This document shows, piece by piece, positions 1 through 5,928 of a DNA stretch of 5,928 nucleotides (its first letter is position 1; each line of letters starts with the position of its first letter). The notes under the pieces were generated by a model. It had not been told where the DNA came from. It saw only the letters and a program-made list of their open reading frames with translations, and did not search any database. The stretch is taken from contig DATEAK010000293.1 of the NCBI GenBank assembly GCA_035288405.1, positions 1 through 5,928 on the forward strand. The letters run 5' to 3'. The position numbers were made by a program, and so were the translations under genes. The DNA is from JACPSX01 sp035288405 [NCBI: bacterium]. Its GTDB lineage: Bacteria > JACPSX01.

Positions 1-31
1 GCATGGAGATTTACGGCGTGAGACGTGATGG

Positions 32-54
32 GTAAGGCGTGTAGGGGCAACCCC
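32..54. repeat. Left copy of a 23-base dispersed repeat
   Basis: Bases 32-54 match 5652-5674 at 22 of 23 positions in the same orientation; the only difference is T40 versus C5660. The core is GTAGGGGCAACCCC, itself a small GGGG/CCCC hairpin. It lies in non-coding DNA left of the transporter genes. Confidence 0.8.
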
Positions 55-64
55 TGGCAACAAA

Positions 65-115
65 GGCAAAGGGCAGGGAGCATGGAACGGAGAGCAAGTT
101 CCCTGCTCGTTTGCC
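65..115. repeat. Strong imperfect inverted repeat (hairpin) upstream of the permease gene
   Basis: Bases 65-79 (GGCAAAGGGCAGGGA) pair with 100-115 (TCCCTGCTCGTTTGCC): 15 pairs including one G-T wobble (72/107), with a single bulged G at 109 and a 20-base loop. It ends 22 bases before ATG 138. No T-run follows, so it is not a standard intrinsic terminator; it may be a leader structure or the remains of a small dispersed element. Confidence 0.7.
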
Positions 116-137
116 CCGGCAGGGAAGATCTGAAGTT

Positions 138-1838
138 ATGAGGACCGGCGTGGATTTGCGTCGCGATGGGAGAACGCCCGTATTCGTTCTCTTGGTAACG
201 CTTGCTTTGGTGCTGGGACCCATTCTGACAGCGCTCTGGTTTAGCTTTCGCACTGGGCTTCCCGGTTTCCCTTCCCCTTACACCTTGAAGAACTATGTCG
301 ACATCCTCGGCTCCTCTAAGGTTTATGGGGTGTTCCTCAACACCTTGGGGCTCGGCGTAGGGACGATGATCACCGTCATGCTCTTTGCCGTCCCCCTTTC
401 TTGGCTTTTGGCCCGCACCGATTTGCCAGCCAAGAGTCTGTGGCTGACAGTGCTAAGCGTGGAGATCCTTATTCCCGGTTTCCTCAAGGCCTTTGCCTGG
501 ATTCTCCTCCTCAATCCGCGCACCGGGATCATTAACGTTGTCCTGATGGGGTTGCTGGGTCTGGAACGGGCGCCGATCAATATTTACACGCTTCCCGCCA
601 TTTCTTTCATCCAGGGATTGAGTCTGACCCCCCCAGCGGTTTTCATGATCGTGACAGCCTTCCGGGCCATGGACATCTCGCTTGAAGAATCTGCTCGGGT
701 CCATGGCATGCGTTACGGCGCTATCGCGCGCCGGATCACTCTTCCGCTGATGATGCCGGCTCTGGTGGCTGCGCTCCTCTACTATTTCGTCACCGCGATC
801 GAGACCTTCGAGATCCCGGCGATCCTTGGTCTACCGTCGCGGATTTTCGTCGTGACGACCCTGATCTATGAAAGCACGCAGCCCGATGCGGGTCTCCCTA
901 ACTACGGTGGCGCGAGCAGCATTGGAATCCTGCTGAGCGCGTTTTCCACCGCGGGGTTGTACTTTTACTTTCGCACCTTGCGCAGGGCGAACCAGTACGC
1001 GGTGATCACAGGCAAGGGCTACCGAACTAGAGAGATCGCGCTTGGAAAATGGAAATGGGTCGGGATGGCTTTCGCTCTTTCTTATCTTCTGCCGGCACTT
1101 GTTCTGCCTTTCCTCACGTTGGTTTGGGCTTCGCTGTTCCGGTACCTGCAGGCGCCGTCCCTTAAGGCCCTGTCGCTGGCATCCCTGGATGCCTACACGA
1201 AAATCTGGGACGCCGCCGGTCCAACCGTGCTAATGAATACAGCGCTCCTGATGGCCATTACAGCCACGCTCGTAATGTCCCTGAGTGTCCTCATCTCATG
1301 GGTGGTCATTCGCAGTAGCTTCAGGTGGAAAAAGGCGCTGGATATGGCGGCCTTCTTGCCTCACGCGGTCCCTTCGGTTGTCTTTGCCCTAGCTCTGGCT
1401 ATCTTTGCTCTGACCCTCAGGCTTCCCATCTACGGGACCATCTTCATCCTGATATTTGGGAACACGATCAAATACCTGGGCTGGGGAACTCGCAGCGTAA
1501 ACAGTACGATGATTCAAATCCACAAAGAGCTGGAAGAAGCGGGCCAAGTCCATGGAATGGTCCGCCTTCAGGTCCTGCGCAGGGTCATCCTTCCCCTCAT
1601 CGGCCCGTCCGTAGTCAACGGCTGGATGTGGATCGCCCTGCTGGCCCTGCGAGAAGTGACCATGGCGCTCATGCTTTACTCGACTCGGAACGTGGTTATA
1701 TCGACTCAGATTTGGAGTCTGTGGCGAGCTGACACAGCTCAGGCCGCCGCCCTCGGGGTCGTGCTGGTAATTGTTGTTGCAGTAGTCTGGTTTTTAGCGC
1801 GCAAGTTCTTGGAGAGTCGCCTTGTCCATCCATTCTGA
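138..1838 (+). CDS. ABC transporter permease, fused two-domain, ferric-iron/AfuB/PotBC-like
   Basis: Inner-membrane permease of a binding-protein-dependent ABC importer, 566 residues, with two homologous permease halves fused in one chain as in FbpB/AfuB proteins. About twelve hydrophobic segments are visible, six per half (roughly residues 13-37, 67-92, 106-126, 151-174, 204-226, 259-279, then 309-333, 366-391, 403-426, 431-451, 488-506, 536-554). Each half carries the cytoplasmic EAA loop that docks on the ATPase: EESARVHG near residue 183 and EEAGQVHG near 466, both followed by the usual LP about 20 residues on. I chose ATG 138 because AGGGAAG at 121-127 lies 10 bases upstream; a TTG at 111 is also in frame but overlaps a hairpin and adds nine non-hydrophobic residues. 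The ATPase gene follows after 51 bases. The family label covers transporters of iron, sugar phosphates, aminoethylphosphonate and other solutes, so the substrate is not settled. Family call is firm; substrate unknown. Confidence 0.93.
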   Translation: MRTGVDLRRDGRTPVFVLLVTLALVLGPILTALWFSFRTGLPGFPSPYTLKNYVDILGSSKVYGVFLNTLGLGVGTMITVMLFAVPLSWLLARTDLPAKSLWLTVLSVEILIPGFLKAFAWILLLNPRTGIINVVLMGLLGLERAPINIYTLPAISFIQGLSLTPPAVFMIVTAFRAMDISLEESARVHGMRYGAIARRITLPLMMPALVAALLYYFVTAIETFEIPAILGLPSRIFVVTTLIYESTQPDAGLPNYGGASSIGILLSAFSTAGLYFYFRTLRRANQYAVITGKGYRTREIALGKWKWVGMAFALSYLLPALVLPFLTLVWASLFRYLQAPSLKALSLASLDAYTKIWDAAGPTVLMNTALLMAITATLVMSLSVLISWVVIRSSFRWKKALDMAAFLPHAVPSVVFALALAIFALTLRLPIYGTIFILIFGNTIKYLGWGTRSVNSTMIQIHKELEEAGQVHGMVRLQVLRRVILPLIGPSVVNGWMWIALLALREVTMALMLYSTRNVVISTQIWSLWRADTAQAAALGVVLVIVVAVVWFLARKFLESRLVHPF

Positions 1839-1874
1839 GTTGTTCGAAGGGTGGCGGGGGCTTCCGTAGGCATC

Positions 1875-1880
1875 GAGGAA
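1875..1880 (+). promoter_or_regulatory. Ribosome binding site deciding the ATPase start
   Basis: GAGGAA lies 9 bases before ATG 1890, good Shine-Dalgarno spacing, and supports 1890 over the upstream GTG 1851, which has only a poor purine run before it. Confidence 0.6.
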
Positions 1881-1889
1881 TTATACGAG

Positions 1890-3002
1890 ATGATTCGCGT
1901 CACGGGTTTAATCAAGGAGTACCAGACAGACCAGGGCGCGGTGAAAGCCTTGCGGGGAATATCTCTGGACATCGAGAAGGGGGAATTTTGTGTTCTACTG
2001 GGTCCGAGCGGATGCGGGAAGACCACAACTTTGAGGTGTGTGGCAGGTTTGGAGCAGCCTGACTCGGGAGAAATTATCATCGAGGACACAGTGATGAACT
2101 CTCCCCAGCGGAAGATTTACGTCCCCCCTGAGGACCGCGGCATCGGCATGATTTTTCAGTCCTACGGCATCTGGCCCCACCTGGACGTTTTTCACAACAT
2201 CTCTCTTCCTTTGGAACACGGGAAGAAGAAACTGCCTCGGTCTGAAATTAGAGACCGGGTAGCAGAGGCCCTGGATTTGGTGCGCCTCAAAGGATTGGAG
2301 GGACGCAGGGCTACGGATCTGAGCGGGGGGCAACAGCAACGAGTCGCGTTGGCCCGATCCTTCGCCTGCAAGCCCAAGGTTCTGCTCATGGATGAGCCAT
2401 TGAGCAACTTGGATGCCAAGCTTCGGGAAGAGATGAGGTCAGAAATCAAGCAGATAACCTCTAGCGTGGGAATCACAGTTCTCTATGTGACCCACGACCA
2501 GTCGGAAGCACTGGTTATGGGTGACGTTGTGGCGGTCATGCGGGGAGGGATGATTCTGCAGCGTGGCTCTCCGCAAGAGCTCTATAGTCGTCCAGAGAGT
2601 CTTGAGGTGGCTGAATTCCTGGGAGAGATGAACTTCATTCAGGGACGCAAGGTGGGTGGTGAGTTGCGGGGCCCGCATCTGGTGGAAACCCGCCTCGGGA
2701 ATTTCATGAGCGATTCGGCGTGGGAGGTCTCTGTGGGAGAGGCTGTCGTGCTCGGAATTCGGCCCGAAGATATCCAACTGTGCGGAGAGAAGCCTCAGGC
2801 AAATAATGCAGTGGCCGCTTCGATCGTTCACAGGCAGTTTCTGGGCAATGCGACCATGTATGAGCTCAATAGCAGCGGAATAAGAATTTCTGCAAGAGCA
2901 ACTGTCCGCCCGGCATCGACTTATTCGTCTGGTGGGGCGATATTTGCAGTTTTGGATATGTCCTGCTTGCACTTGTTCAGGTGTGTGGAGTCCAAGGAAT
3001 GA
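1890..3002 (+). CDS. ABC transporter ATP-binding protein, FbpC/PotA-like with C-terminal TOBE domain
   Basis: Cytoplasmic ATPase that powers the permease encoded just upstream; 370 residues, normal for the FbpC/PotA/UgpC group. All nucleotide-binding motifs are intact: Walker A GPSGCGKT (38-45), Q-loop glutamine 90 in IFQSYGIWPH, signature LSGGQ (144-148), Walker B VLLMDEP (164-170, catalytic Glu169), D-loop SNLD (172-175) and H-loop His202. After about residue 240 comes a regulatory TOBE-type region that includes GIRPEDIQL (289-297). The WPH after the Q-loop is common in iron/sugar/polyamine-type importers. ATG 1890 is preferred because GAGGAA (1875-1880) sits 9 bases upstream and the protein then begins MIRVTGLIKEY, as in the family; an in-frame GTG at 1851 would add 13 poorly conserved-looking residues. 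It is probably translated from the permease transcript. The C-terminus is less typical than the ATPase core but shows no frameshift. The transported solute cannot be read from this subunit. Confidence 0.95.
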   Translation: MIRVTGLIKEYQTDQGAVKALRGISLDIEKGEFCVLLGPSGCGKTTTLRCVAGLEQPDSGEIIIEDTVMNSPQRKIYVPPEDRGIGMIFQSYGIWPHLDVFHNISLPLEHGKKKLPRSEIRDRVAEALDLVRLKGLEGRRATDLSGGQQQRVALARSFACKPKVLLMDEPLSNLDAKLREEMRSEIKQITSSVGITVLYVTHDQSEALVMGDVVAVMRGGMILQRGSPQELYSRPESLEVAEFLGEMNFIQGRKVGGELRGPHLVETRLGNFMSDSAWEVSVGEAVVLGIRPEDIQLCGEKPQANNAVAASIVHRQFLGNATMYELNSSGIRISARATVRPASTYSSGGAIFAVLDMSCLHLFRCVESKE

Positions 3003-3013
3003 ACCCTGTACCA

Positions 3014-3056
3014 CGGACTTACGTCCGCTGCTTTGGGGTGCCCTTAGGGGAAGTCC
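3014..3056. other. Competing small stem-loops after the ATPase gene
   Basis: CGGAC (3014-3018) pairs with GTCCG (3023-3027) around TTAC. Alternatively GGACTT (3015-3020) pairs with AAGTCC (3051-3056). Both lie within 55 bases after the ATPase stop, where the transporter transcript might end, but there is no T-run. The rest of the 3003-3209 gap shows no convincing gene or promoter. Confidence 0.3.
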
Positions 3057-3209
3057 AGAACGTTCACCTGGATCCGACACTTTCACAGGAGTGGAGACCT
3101 TTGTGATCGAGGATTTTCGCATCGGGGTTCATTTCAACACTCACCTGCGGGGCGTTTTGTGGCACGGGGTGAATGGCATTGGGAGGGGAGATTGAAGCCG
3201 TCTTACCGA

Positions 3210-3929
3210 ATGGAAGAGAGTAAGCCGTTGTTTCAGATGCTGCCGCGCCGCCGCATCTACGAGGCGATTGTCAGCCAGATCAAAGAAGCCGTGTTCAGAA
3301 GAGAGCTGAAGCCTGGGGATCGGCTTCCTTCTGAAAAGGAAATGATGAGAATCTTCGGAGTAAGCAATATGGCGGTTCGGGAAGCCATGCGGACGTTGGA
3401 GCAGCAGGGACTGATCCAGGTCCGGAAAGGGAGCGGAGGAGGATGTTTTATTTCTGAAATCAATAACGATGCTCTCACAAGCTTTTTTAATTTGGCGATG
3501 GTCCAAGGCAAGGTCAGGCTAAATGACTTGACAGAGATTCGGCTCATGGTGGAACCCGAGCTCACAAGGCTAGCCGCAATTAGGGGAAATGCGGACGATG
3601 TGCGCGCTCTGGAAAAGATGCACGATCAGGCCGAGCGCCTTATTTCCGTCGGATCCCCGGTGAGTGGGGCCAACATCGACTTTCACGGCAGACTGGCGCT
3701 GGCCTCGGGAAACCACCTGGCTATCATGCTTGCAGGTTCGTTGCGTGATCTCCTCCTAGAACTCATGAATGCTCGCACGGAGAGTAAAAAGGCTCAGGTA
3801 GAGGTGCAAAAACACCACGCGAGGATCATCGAAGCCGTCAAAAAGAGAGATGCGGAAGAAGCGTGCGACGAAATGCGCCAGCACATTCTCTGGCTCCATA
3901 GCAGGCTGGGTGATCGGCCTAAGTTCTAG
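3210..3929 (+). CDS. GntR-family transcriptional regulator, FadR/FCD subfamily
   Basis: Dimeric DNA-binding regulator of 239 residues, the usual size for the FadR subfamily. An N-terminal winged helix-turn-helix spans about residues 13-82, with the family hallmark LKPGDRLPSEKEM and the recognition helix in SNMAVREAMRTLEQQGLI, followed by a glycine-rich wing. The all-helical C-terminal FCD ligand domain (about 105-230) keeps the probable metal-ligand set: Asn155 (often Asp) and His159 in NIDFH, His203 in HHARIIEA, and His225 in MRQHI. Known FCD regulators mostly sense small carboxylates or acyl compounds and often repress neighbouring catabolic genes, so control of the adjacent UbiD gene and perhaps the transporter is a reasonable inference. 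The start is uncertain: ATG 3210 matches the family N-terminus but has no close Shine-Dalgarno; TTG 3192 has GGGAGG five bases upstream; GTG 3159 is also in frame. The stop is 66 bases before the decarboxylase start, suggesting co-transcription. Confidence 0.93.
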   Translation: MEESKPLFQMLPRRRIYEAIVSQIKEAVFRRELKPGDRLPSEKEMMRIFGVSNMAVREAMRTLEQQGLIQVRKGSGGGCFISEINNDALTSFFNLAMVQGKVRLNDLTEIRLMVEPELTRLAAIRGNADDVRALEKMHDQAERLISVGSPVSGANIDFHGRLALASGNHLAIMLAGSLRDLLLELMNARTESKKAQVEVQKHHARIIEAVKKRDAEEACDEMRQHILWLHSRLGDRPKF

Positions 3930-3983
3930 GCTATGCGTCTCCCTATGAATGAACCCGGAGAAAGACCGGTAAAAGAGGCTAAG

Positions 3984-3990
3984 AAGGGGG
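3984..3990 (+). promoter_or_regulatory. Ribosome binding site deciding the UbiD-family start
   Basis: AAGGGGG ends 5 bases before ATG 3996. Neither of the upstream in-frame ATGs (3933, 3945) has a comparable site, since both lie just after the regulator stop codon. Confidence 0.55.
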
Positions 3991-3995
3991 AATCG

Positions 3996-5588
3996 ATGGG
4001 ATACAAAAGCCTGGGTGAATATCTCCAGCGATTAGAAGAAGAGGGAGAACTAATCCGCGTCAAGCGAAAGATTAACAAGGATACGGAGCTTATGCCCCTG
4101 GTGCGCTGGCAGTTTCGAGGTTTGACCAAAGAGCAGCGCAAGGCGTTCTGGTTTGACAACGTCGTGGATGCCAAGGGCAGAAGATATGACATGCCGGTGG
4201 TGGTCGGGATTCTAGGCGCCTCACGAAAGATTTACGCCCTGGCAATGGGGACTACCGTAGACCAAATATCCAAGGTCTGGGAGCAGGCGCAGCTTCACCC
4301 AGTCGATCCGGTTCTGGTGCAAACAGGGAGGGTCAAAGAGGTCATTCAACGTGGAGCCGACCTATTGAAAGAAGGCGGAGGGATGGATCTTTTCCCGACT
4401 CCTATCTCTCTTCCCGGCTTCGATTCAGCGCCATATCTTTCAGCTCCTTGCATGGTGAGCAAGGATCCTGACACGGGAATCCGCAACGTGGGCACGTACC
4501 GGGGCATGGTGAAGGCCCGCAATCGCCTGGGAATACTTGCCCACCGCACGCAGCATATGGGCGTTCACATGGCCAAGTGCAAGAAACTGAATAAACCTTT
4601 GGAAGTTGCTATTATCCTAGGCTATCCGCCCCAGGTGGGATTGTGTAGTGTCACGAAGATCCCTTATGGCATCGACGAGTTCAGCATCGCTGGCGGGATC
4701 GCGGGAGAACCGATCCCCCTGGTGAAGTGCGAAACGATTGACATGGAGGTCCCGGCCGACGCGGAGATTGTCTTAGAAGGGATTATTCCCACGGATTACC
4801 TGGAACCCGAGGCCCCTTTCGGAGAATTCACCGGCTACATAGGGGAGCGAATCCTGAGTCCGGTCTTCCACATCCAATGCATCACTCACCGTCGCAATCC
4901 AATCTATCACGCCTACATCAGCCAGTTCCCGCCGAGCGAAAGCAGCACGATCCGAGGAATCGGGCGGGAGGCGGTCCTTTACAAGCATCTTAAACACAAC
5001 TGCAACGTGCCGGGCATTCTGGATGTCGCCTGCCACGAGTACTGCGGATCCAATAACTATGTGGTTATCCAAATGGACAAGATCCATAACAGCCATGCAT
5101 GGCAGGCTCTGAACTCGGCTGCCGGTTACGACCCCGGCCTGGGGAAAATCATTGTAGCCGTCGATAAGGACATCGACCCACACGACTCGGAGAACGTCAA
5201 CTGGGCTCTCTGCTACCGCATGCAGCCTCATCTGGATATGCGGGTGGTGCCGGGAAGGGTCTATGCGTTGGATCCCTCCTCGGCTCCTCCCGGAGCATCC
5301 CGGGAGGAACGACACTATCCTTCTCCTACCGGCACATCTTGTGTGCTCATCGACGCCACTCGGAAATGGGCATATCCTCCGGTTTCTTTGCCGGAAAAGA
5401 TGTACATGGAAAATGCGCGCGCGATCTGGCAGGAGTTGGATCTGCCTGCTTTGACTCCCAGGGTTCCATGGTACGGCTACTCACTGGGAGACTGGACGCC
5501 GGAAAACGAGGAGGAGGCCCAGATCGCGGTGCGCGGGGATTACTATCAGACCGGAGAGAAGTTAGCCGGAAGAGGAGTAAAGGTCTGA
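3996..5588 (+). CDS. UbiD-family prenylated-FMN-dependent decarboxylase
   Basis: Cytoplasmic non-oxidative (de)carboxylase of 530 residues, within the normal UbiD/Fdc/AroY size range. Members use prenylated FMN, made by a UbiX-type partner, to remove or add CO2 on aromatic, heteroaromatic or alpha,beta-unsaturated acids. By position relative to Aspergillus niger Fdc1, the metal/cofactor ligands Asn164, His187 and Glu228 and the catalytic Arg169, Glu272 and Glu277 (in NVGTYR, TQHMG, DEFSIAGG and PEAPFGEFTGY) are all present with near-identical spacing, so the enzyme should be active. Further family marks are DKDIDPHD and LIDATRKW toward the C-terminus, and the tail has a YGYSLGDW stretch. ATG 3996 is chosen because AAGGGGG (3984-3990) lies 5 bases upstream and MGYKSLGEYLQRLEEEGEL matches typical UbiD N-termini; in-frame ATGs at 3933 and 3945 would add up to 21 charged residues. 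The ubiquinone role of true UbiD is unlikely given the regulator and transporter neighbours; a catabolic substrate is inferred but unidentified. Confidence 0.95.
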   Translation: MGYKSLGEYLQRLEEEGELIRVKRKINKDTELMPLVRWQFRGLTKEQRKAFWFDNVVDAKGRRYDMPVVVGILGASRKIYALAMGTTVDQISKVWEQAQLHPVDPVLVQTGRVKEVIQRGADLLKEGGGMDLFPTPISLPGFDSAPYLSAPCMVSKDPDTGIRNVGTYRGMVKARNRLGILAHRTQHMGVHMAKCKKLNKPLEVAIILGYPPQVGLCSVTKIPYGIDEFSIAGGIAGEPIPLVKCETIDMEVPADAEIVLEGIIPTDYLEPEAPFGEFTGYIGERILSPVFHIQCITHRRNPIYHAYISQFPPSESSTIRGIGREAVLYKHLKHNCNVPGILDVACHEYCGSNNYVVIQMDKIHNSHAWQALNSAAGYDPGLGKIIVAVDKDIDPHDSENVNWALCYRMQPHLDMRVVPGRVYALDPSSAPPGASREERHYPSPTGTSCVLIDATRKWAYPPVSLPEKMYMENARAIWQELDLPALTPRVPWYGYSLGDWTPENEEEAQIAVRGDYYQTGEKLAGRGVKV

Positions 5589-5651
5589 GCGACAAATAGC
5601 TAAGCGCATGGCGCAAAGAGCGGGGGGCAGGGAGCGAAGAGGCGGGGTATC

Positions 5652-5674
5652 GTAAGGCGCGTAGGGGCAACCCC
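5652..5674. repeat. Right copy of the 23-base dispersed repeat, with its own small inverted repeat
   Basis: This copy matches 32-54 with one difference and lies in the gap between the decarboxylase and SDR genes. Just beyond it, GGGCAA (5665-5670) can pair with TTGCCC (5682-5687) around an 11-base loop. The word GGGCAGGGAGC also occurs near both copies (71-81 and 5625-5635), although on opposite sides of the repeat. Confidence 0.8.
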
Positions 5675-5681
5675 CCTGTGA

Positions 5682-5710
5682 TTGCCCAAGAAATCAGAGG
5701 TCAGTGTTAT
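5682..5710 (+). promoter_or_regulatory. Possible weak sigma-70-type promoter for the SDR gene
   Basis: TTGCCC (5682-5687) and TGTTAT (5705-5710) each match four of six consensus bases and are separated by exactly 17 bases. The -10-like box lies inside the loop of the 5695-5727 inverted repeat. Such matches arise by chance fairly often, so this is a suggestion only. Confidence 0.25.
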
Positions 5711-5727
5711 CTGACGTCTGACCTCTG
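5695..5727. repeat. Perfect 10-bp inverted repeat ahead of the SDR gene
   Basis: CAGAGGTCAG (5695-5704) and CTGACCTCTG (5718-5727) are perfect inverse complements separated by 13 bases. An inner CTGAC at 5711-5715 can compete for pairing with GTCAG at 5700-5704, giving two mutually exclusive hairpins. The arm ends 5 bases before the SDR ribosome binding site. No T-run follows, so a terminator is unlikely; an operator or a translation-affecting hairpin is possible. Confidence 0.7.
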
Positions 5728-5744
5728 GATTCGGAGTAAAGAGA

Positions 5745-5928
5745 GTGGACCTTGGTTTTGCAAAAAAAGTCGCCGTAGTCACGGGGGGAACTCGCGGGAT
5801 TGGCAAGGCTTGCGCTCGCCTTTTCGCCGACGAGGGAGCAAAGGTTGCCATCTGCGCTCGCAATCTAGAGCGCTTAAAATCAGTAGAGCGGGAGATTGAA
5901 AGTCTTGGAACCGAAGTGCTGGCTCTCC
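5745..5928 (+). CDS. Short-chain dehydrogenase/reductase (SDR), N-terminal part, runs off the window edge
   Basis: The first 61 codons of an NAD(P)-dependent oxidoreductase of the classical SDR family; the reading frame is open to the window end, so the catalytic Ser/Tyr/Lys region lies outside. From GTG 5745 the protein begins MDLGFAKKVAVVTGG. It shows the first beta strand (KVAVVTG), the cofactor glycine motif TGGTRGIG (residues 13-20), the helix KACARLFADEGAKV, and the second strand VAICARN followed by ERL. The Arg after the second strand is compatible with NADP(H) preference, but that is tentative. GGAG at 5733-5736, 8 bases before the GTG, supports the start. The gene follows the decarboxylase after 156 non-coding bases holding a repeat and an inverted repeat, so it may have its own promoter. 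SDRs of this look include 3-oxoacyl-ACP reductase-like and many catabolic alcohol dehydrogenases; the substrate cannot be inferred from this fragment. Confidence 0.92.
   Translation, partial: MDLGFAKKVAVVTGGTRGIGKACARLFADEGAKVAICARNLERLKSVEREIESLGTEVLAL

What the first reader, a model, noticed from the sequence alone, without database searches (positions are those of the whole stretch)
32..5674. Near-identical direct repeats bracket the transporter-regulator-decarboxylase cassette
A 23-base sequence at 32-54 recurs at 5652-5674 with one mismatch, in the same orientation and in non-coding DNA on each side of exactly four genes. A match of this length is not expected by chance in 6 kb. A shared 11-base word (71-81 and 5625-5635) shows the two spacers have wider common ancestry, although its order relative to the repeat differs. 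The repeats could be copies of a genome-wide intergenic element that happen to flank the cassette, or traces of recombination or insertion that brought it in as a unit.
Basis: partly seen in the sequence, partly recalled or inferred. Interest (0 to 1): 0.6.

Follow-up and report, generated by a model that had tools for sequence, protein, structure and literature searches.

The report
Scattered REP hairpin repeats, not cassette ends
The two matching sequences on either side of these four genes look like copies of a small, well-known type of hairpin repeat (a REP) that bacteria scatter around their genomes, so they are probably not the marks of a gene cassette that moved as a unit.

Summary
In detail: 22 of 23 bases match, beyond chance. 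The cassette reading is not supported. The last 14 bases, GTAGGGGCAACCCC, are the 5' half of a GTAG-tagged REP hairpin, consensus GTAG-GGGCAACC-CCCTGT-GGTTGCCC. The right copy is complete (5661-5687, 7 of 8 pairs); the left keeps only the 5' arm (41-54). The hairpin is in 51 of 395 genomes of one phylum, 1 to 21 copies each, reversed control 0 of 395, with compensatory stem changes. Genomes with it more often encode a REP-associated tyrosine transposase (36 of 51, against 17 of 109) resembling published TnpA-REP subclass 2.4. The first 9 bases (GTAAGGCGY) and the shared 11-base word lie in spacers with degenerate 7-base periodicity, but the 9-base extension stays unexplained: the 23-mer gave 1 hit, with 3 mismatches, in 66 REP- or heptamer-positive genomes (control also 1). 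The window's genome is not held and the best UbiD identity found is 52-53%, so copy number and empty site could not be tested. Ordinary: a new member of a known kind.

The parts
41..54 (+). left REP remnant: GTAG tag plus 5' arm GGGCAACC and two further C; 3' arm missing
   Evidence: sequence; the hairpin finder reports no element here; only a short GGGG-CAA-CCCC hairpin folds
5661..5687 (+). right REP, complete: GTAG / GGGCAACC / loop CCCCTGT / GATTGCCC, 7 of 8 pairs
   Evidence: family. Folded alone the hairpin forms but is not unusually stable (z -1.26, 21 of 200 shuffles as good), and it is not in the best fold of the 150-nt spacer
32..40 (+). 9-nt extension shared upstream of the left REP (GTAAGGCGT), perhaps part of a degenerate heptamer array
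   Evidence: not found as such upstream of REPs elsewhere
5652..5660 (+). 9-nt extension shared upstream of the right REP (GTAAGGCGC)
1..137 (.). left spacer with 7- and 14-base periodicity (degenerate heptamers), holding the left REP remnant and the word at 71-81
   Evidence: lag-7 z 2.6 and lag-14 z 2.7 over 1-137; too degenerate for Tandem Repeats Finder (0 rows)
5589..5744 (.). right spacer with 7- and 14-base periodicity, holding the complete REP and the word at 5625-5635
   Evidence: lag-7 z 4.1, lag-14 z 3.1; 0 rows in Tandem Repeats Finder
5690..5732 (+). separate inverted repeat, 15-nt arms (GAAATCAGAGGTCAG / CTGACCTCTGGATTC), between UbiD and SDR
   Evidence: I10; formed in the spacer fold
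138..1838 (+). ABC permease, two fused BPD_transp_1 halves
   Evidence: PF00528, two stretches; best NCBIfam match TIGR03262 far below its cut-off
1890..3002 (+). ABC ATPase with TOBE/OB domain
   Evidence: PF00005, PF08402
3210..3929 (+). GntR-family regulator with FCD domain (start codon chosen by eye)
   Evidence: PF00392, PF07729
3996..5588 (+). UbiD-family decarboxylase (start codon chosen by eye)
   Evidence: PF01977, PF20696, PF20695; TIGR00148 above its cut-off
5745..5928 (+). 5' part of a short-chain dehydrogenase gene, same strand, runs off the window
   Evidence: PF00106

Best explanation
The two repeats are independent copies of a dispersed GTAG-tagged REP element (GTAG + 8-bp stem + loop of 6 or 7 nt), lying in spacers that also hold degenerate heptamer repeats. 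Such REPs are thought to be copied as single-stranded hairpins by a REP-associated tyrosine transposase (RAYT, TnpA-REP); the one associated here resembles subclass 2.4 (RAYT group 4). Shown here: the repeat, its hairpin in the right copy, the family in other genomes, stem covariation, and its association with RAYT genes there. Inferred: that a RAYT did this in the window's organism, that the two copies arrived one by one, and that the left copy is a remnant. The complete right copy could form an RNA hairpin between UbiD and the SDR gene and affect mRNA decay or read-through; this was not tested. The four genes are read as an ordinary catabolic and transport neighbourhood, not a bracketed mobile unit.
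For: Consensus 26-mer, up to 3 mismatches, in 51 of 395 genomes, 223 copies in all; reversed pattern in 0 of 395. In 78 distinct copies (150 typed from the listing) 15 stem cells change on both sides and 13 of them stay complementary, against a shuffled mean of 1.3 and maximum of 6 in 2000. Several copies stand in inverted pairs with a sister REP such as GGGCAGGC. RAYT profile matches in 36 of 51 REP-positive and 17 of 109 randomly drawn REP-negative genomes, Fisher 1.8e-11; 15 of 18 genomes with 5 or more copies, 15 of 24 with one. RAYT genes carry a GTAG hairpin in their open frame within 300 nt after the HUH motif in 36 of 40 loci read, against 2 of 2000 codon shuffles, a feature printed as unique to subclass 2.4 (PMC6006769). 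Of 29 distinct copies at loci fetched by the 26-mer, 16 lay outside any ORF of 120 aa or more.
Against: The shared stretch is longer than the REP: 8 of 9 upstream bases also match, and the 23-mer is not seen elsewhere beyond the control rate (1 of 66, control 1; 1 of 197, control 2; 0 of 249, control 1; 0 of 3). The left copy has no 3' arm. The right hairpin alone is not unusually stable and is not in the best fold of its spacer. 24 of the 51 positive genomes have a single copy, far from the high copy numbers typical of REPs. 41 stem cells change on one side only, 15 of them to G-T. 13 of 29 copies lay in ORFs of 120 aa or more, 2 of these RAYT, so the family is not purely intergenic. Copy number in the window's genome is unknown and no RAYT lies in the window. 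Genomes are related, so the Fisher value overstates independence. The phylum was reached from a distant UbiD relative and is not known to be the window's.
Confidence: 0.85

Rival explanations
1. The 23-mers are the ends of, or the recombination scar around, a cassette of four genes that was gained or can be lost as a unit.
For: Same orientation, one mismatch, non-coding on both sides of four co-oriented genes; the repeat extends 9 nt beyond the REP.
Against: The shared core is a dispersed REP. Among 37 UbiD loci none held all four genes: no GntR match in any, permease in 2 (L017, L020, about 8.5 kb from UbiD), ABC ATPase in 5 (for the 15 loci L054-L068 at most about 1.5 kb of flank was read). 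A co-oriented SDR gene follows directly. In the Binatia locus L017 a solute-binding-protein gene (PF13531) stands directly before the related permease, so here the left repeat may split a transport operon rather than bound it (inference). No recombinase or transposase among the five proteins scanned.
Confidence: 0.05
2. The 23-mer is a genome-specific compound repeat, a heptamer unit plus a REP, that spreads as one piece or forms by REP insertion beside that unit.
For: 8 of 9 upstream bases match although the REP copies printed from other genomes show no common upstream sequence; both spacers are period-7; L149 holds GTAAGGCGTAAAGCGCAAGGCGCAAGG in a heptamer stretch.
Against: Only two copies seen; the compound is in 0 viral contigs and at control rate in 66 genomes; GTAAGGC is not enriched in the 18 heptamer loci (5 hits against 13 for the reversed word).
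Confidence: 0.2
3. The repeats are kept as RNA hairpins for mRNA stability or read-through control of the flanking genes (not exclusive with REP origin).
For: [quoted passage not shown] the right copy can fold.
Against: The left copy has no intact hairpin. No plus-strand terminator-like site adjoins either copy; the three sites found in the window are fewer than the 5.6 expected, one being on the minus strand at 5700-5715.
Confidence: 0.2

Closest known systems
GTAG-tagged REP elements (Di Nocera et al. 2013, PMC3733652; abstract, sections 5, 15, 16 and passages seen)
   Same: 5' GTAG, stem of 6-13 bp, short loop, mostly between genes, inverted dimers, some inside ORFs
   Different: whether GGGCAACC/GGTTGCCC is one of the 24 published families cannot be told: the consensus table is a figure, which is not held; the left copy is only half an element; copy numbers found here are low
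TnpA-REP subclass 2.4 / RAYT group 4 with its REPs (PMC6006769; sections 13, 23 and passages seen)
   Same: GT[AG]G tag, stem base of three G-C pairs, REPs in frame inside the transposase gene after HuH; NH[IFV]H in 33 and WQ in 37 of 40 loci
   Different: printed motif YIxNNP in only 17 of 40 loci and 0 of 6 profile rows, most others being YIxxNP; no tree was built; no transposase in the window
Intergenic heptamer repeats (GGGAATC in Xanthomonas, GGGGATT in Nostoc; PMC4692102, passages seen)
   Same: 7-base units in intergenic DNA
   Different: here very degenerate, of other sequence, and not detected by TRF

Membership tests
GTAG REP | GTAG tetranucleotide at one end | tested here: met
   both copies, 41-44 and 5661-5664
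GTAG REP | palindromic stem adjoining the tag | tested here: met
   met in the right copy, 7 of 8 pairs; not met in the left copy, whose 3' arm is absent
GTAG REP | high copy number in the host genome | not testable with these tools
   window genome not held; in other genomes 1-21 copies per positive genome with one 26-mer pattern, 24 of 51 with a single copy
GTAG REP | stem kept by compensatory change | tested here: met
   13 compensatory cells against a shuffled mean of 1.3, 78 distinct copies from other genomes; 41 cells changed on one side only
REP of TnpA-REP subclass 2.4 (RAYT group 4) | three G-C pairs at the base of the stem | tested here: met
   GGG...CCC in the right copy; feature as printed in PMC6006769
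REP of TnpA-REP subclass 2.4 (RAYT group 4) | cognate RAYT in the same genome with REPs in frame inside its gene | tested here: inconclusive
   seen in other genomes (36 of 51 have a RAYT; 36 of 40 loci with GTAG hairpins after HUH, 5 of the 40 being genes from which the profile was built); not testable in the window's genome
REP of TnpA-REP subclass 2.4 (RAYT group 4) | transposase motifs NH[IFV]H, WQ, YIxNNP as printed | tested here: inconclusive
   33, 37 and 17 of 40 loci
Mobile cassette bounded by direct repeats | empty site with a single repeat in a relative | not testable with these tools
   no close relative found
Mobile cassette bounded by direct repeats | recombinase or transposase in the unit | tested here: not met
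   five proteins scanned: transporter, regulator, UbiD and SDR only

The most novel reading that the evidence does not exclude
In this organism REPs have settled next to a particular heptamer unit (GTAAGGCGY), giving a compound heptamer-REP element, so that heptamer arrays act as landing sites for the REP transposase.
Probability: 0.15. Interest if true: 0.4.

Novelty: new member of a known kind. Interest (0 to 1): 0.15.

Why it matters
It removes a likely false lead: short matching repeats around a gene set can be REPs rather than mobile-element ends, and looking for GTAG plus a palindrome tells them apart. The transposase genes seen on the way agree with the printed statement that this kind of transposase gene holds REPs in frame.

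Tried and rejected
Mobile cassette: no homologous locus with the unit found. Rfam: 0 matches up to E 1. Promoters and terminators: 0 promoter-like sites, 3 terminator-like (5.6 expected), one on the minus strand at 5700-5715 near the right copy. Tandem repeats by TRF: none; the period-7 signal appears only in autocorrelation. Viral contigs: a pattern with the spacing of the window's own right copy gave 0, one with the consensus spacing gave 4 contigs, the compound GTAAGGCGNGTAGGGGC gave 0. 23-mer in other taxa: 1 of 197 genomes of the class of the Dehalococcoidia locus, control 2; 0 of 249 of the phylum of L009, control 1; 0 of 3 of the class of G651; 1 of 66, control 1. The bare 14-mer is too short to be telling: 8 of 95 genomes with control 9 (phylum of a Methylomirabilota locus) and 14 of 99 with control 7; hairpins were confirmed in 3 of the 8 and 8 of the 14. 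PDB: the RAYT of L099 matches only IS200-type transposases, best E 0.0012. Literature, listings only: the 8-mer GTAGGGGC is in 440 papers, none of the 20 listed on REPs by title; six longer forms find one unrelated paper; malE-malF with REP gave nothing usable among 8 listed; RAYT and in-frame terms gave nothing on the point among 15 listed. I had taken REPs inside the transposase gene for unreported and dropped that after PMC6006769. GTAAGGC is not enriched in heptamer loci. Heptamer 18-mer: 14 of 341 genomes, control 2; some of the 18 loci are not periodic (L143, L144, L151).
Full report
Observation. The two 23-mers exist as described and are not chance (0 matches in 200 shuffles). The 11-base word is also there; shuffled spacers share 11 or more bases in 3 of 500 trials.

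What the 23-mer is made of. It splits into GTAAGGCGY (9 nt) and GTAGGGGCAACCCC (14 nt). The 14-mer is the 5' half of a hairpin. At 5661-5687 the whole element is present: GTAG, arm GGGCAACC, loop CCCCTGT, arm GATTGCCC, one mispair. Folded alone it forms the hairpin, but not more stably than many shuffles (z -1.26, 21 of 200 as good), and in the best fold of the 150-nt spacer other pairs win. The case for a REP therefore rests on the family, not on this one fold. At 41-54 only the tag and 5' arm remain, and the hairpin finder sees nothing there.

The family elsewhere. No genome is held for the window. The nearest UbiD relatives found are 52% (L001, titled Dehalococcoidia) and 53% (G592, phylum of the Binatia locus L017, 345 genomes searched). 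In that phylum the consensus GTAGGGGCAACCCCCTGTGGTTGCCC with up to 3 mismatches is in 51 of 395 genomes, while the reversed pattern is in 0 of 395. The 51 hold 223 copies: 18 genomes have 5 or more (at most 21), 24 have one. The bare 14-mer is less telling: 14 of 99 genomes with control 7, and 8 of 95 with control 9 in the phylum of a Methylomirabilota locus, hairpins being confirmed in 8 and 3 of these. In 20 genomes that hold distant UbiD relatives a 27-mer form is in 1, control 0. The stem varies in a compensated way: in 78 distinct copies, from 150 typed out of the listing, 15 cells change on both sides, 13 of them complementary, against a shuffled mean of 1.3; 41 cells change on one side only. 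These copies were selected by closeness to the consensus, and the changes are not independent events. Inverted pairs with sister REPs such as GGGCAGGC recur. Of 29 distinct copies at loci L069-L097, 16 lie outside any ORF of 120 aa or more, 2 in RAYT genes and 11 in other such ORFs, some of which may be spurious.

The transposase. Four REP loci showed a Y1 transposase (PF01797 above its cut-off; NCBIfam REP_Tyr_transpos best but below its cut-off). A six-row profile, all rows from loci fetched by the 14-mer, was run at E 1e-15 on all 51 REP-positive and on 109 REP-negative genomes drawn at random from 343: matches in 36 of 51 and 17 of 109 (Fisher 1.8e-11). Kinship of genomes is not corrected for. 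Of 45 RAYT loci fetched, 5 gave no frame with the HUH pattern; of the other 40, 36 carry a GTAG hairpin in their open frame within 300 nt after the HUH motif, 30 in both orientations; in 26-mer-negative genomes 16 of 16, with other REP types; codon shuffles 2 of 2000. Five of the 40 are genes from which the profile was built, and the profile favours such genes. REPs in frame inside the gene are printed as unique to TnpA-REP subclass 2.4, equal to RAYT group 4 (PMC6006769: sections 13 and 23 and passages seen). The printed motifs are met in part: NH[IFV]H 33, WQ 37, YIxNNP 17 of 40. I therefore say 'resembles subclass 2.4'. That GTAG and the hairpin matter for recognition and cleavage is shown for other TnpA-REPs (PMC8266576, passages).

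The spacers. Self-similarity at lags 7 and 14 stands out over the other lags from 3 to 14 in both whole spacers (z 2.6 and 2.7 left, 4.1 and 3.1 right). An 18-mer from the right spacer is in 14 of 341 genomes, control in 2; some of its 18 loci are clearly periodic (L154, L155), others are not. The shared word GGGCAGGGAGC was found once more, in such a stretch in L159, and in none of the 146 other loci. So the word, and perhaps the 9-nt extension, belong to degenerate heptamer DNA. This part is weak: the 23-mer as a whole was not found elsewhere beyond control rate and GTAAGGC is not enriched in heptamer loci.

The genes. Permease, ATPase, GntR/FCD regulator, UbiD, then SDR, all on one strand. 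Among 37 UbiD loci none has the four genes together, and none has a GntR match. In L017 a solute-binding-protein gene stands directly before the related permease. If the same holds here, the left REP sits inside a transport operon; this is inference.

Verdict. A real repeat, read as two independent REP copies in heptamer-like spacers. No support found for a mobile cassette, though the decisive comparison could not be made. Ordinary, with one loose end: the shared 9-nt extension.

Noticed in passing
L098-L142: REP transposase genes carry GTAG hairpins, mostly in inverted pairs, in frame after the HUH motif (36 of 40 loci read), and the REP type differs from gene to gene (GGAACGGT, GGGCGGTT, GGGCGGGT and others). 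In-frame REPs are already printed for subclass 2.4 (PMC6006769).
   Followed up: partly
window 5690-5732: A separate 15-nt-arm inverted repeat (GAAATCAGAGGTCAG / CTGACCTCTGGATTC) lies between the right REP and the SDR gene.
   Followed up: no
L001 11614-11655: The spacer directly after the related UbiD gene of the Dehalococcoidia locus is also a heptamer array (AGCTTTC-like), of other sequence.
   Followed up: no
L100 (G640): One RAYT gene has repeated internal units (AGPRACP and GQPQGVVLSIP), as if its REP-coding part had expanded in tandem.
   Followed up: no
L009: A genome whose record is titled Desulfovibrio sp. falls in the same phylum as G011, titled Bacillota bacterium, so the title is probably wrong.
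   Followed up: no
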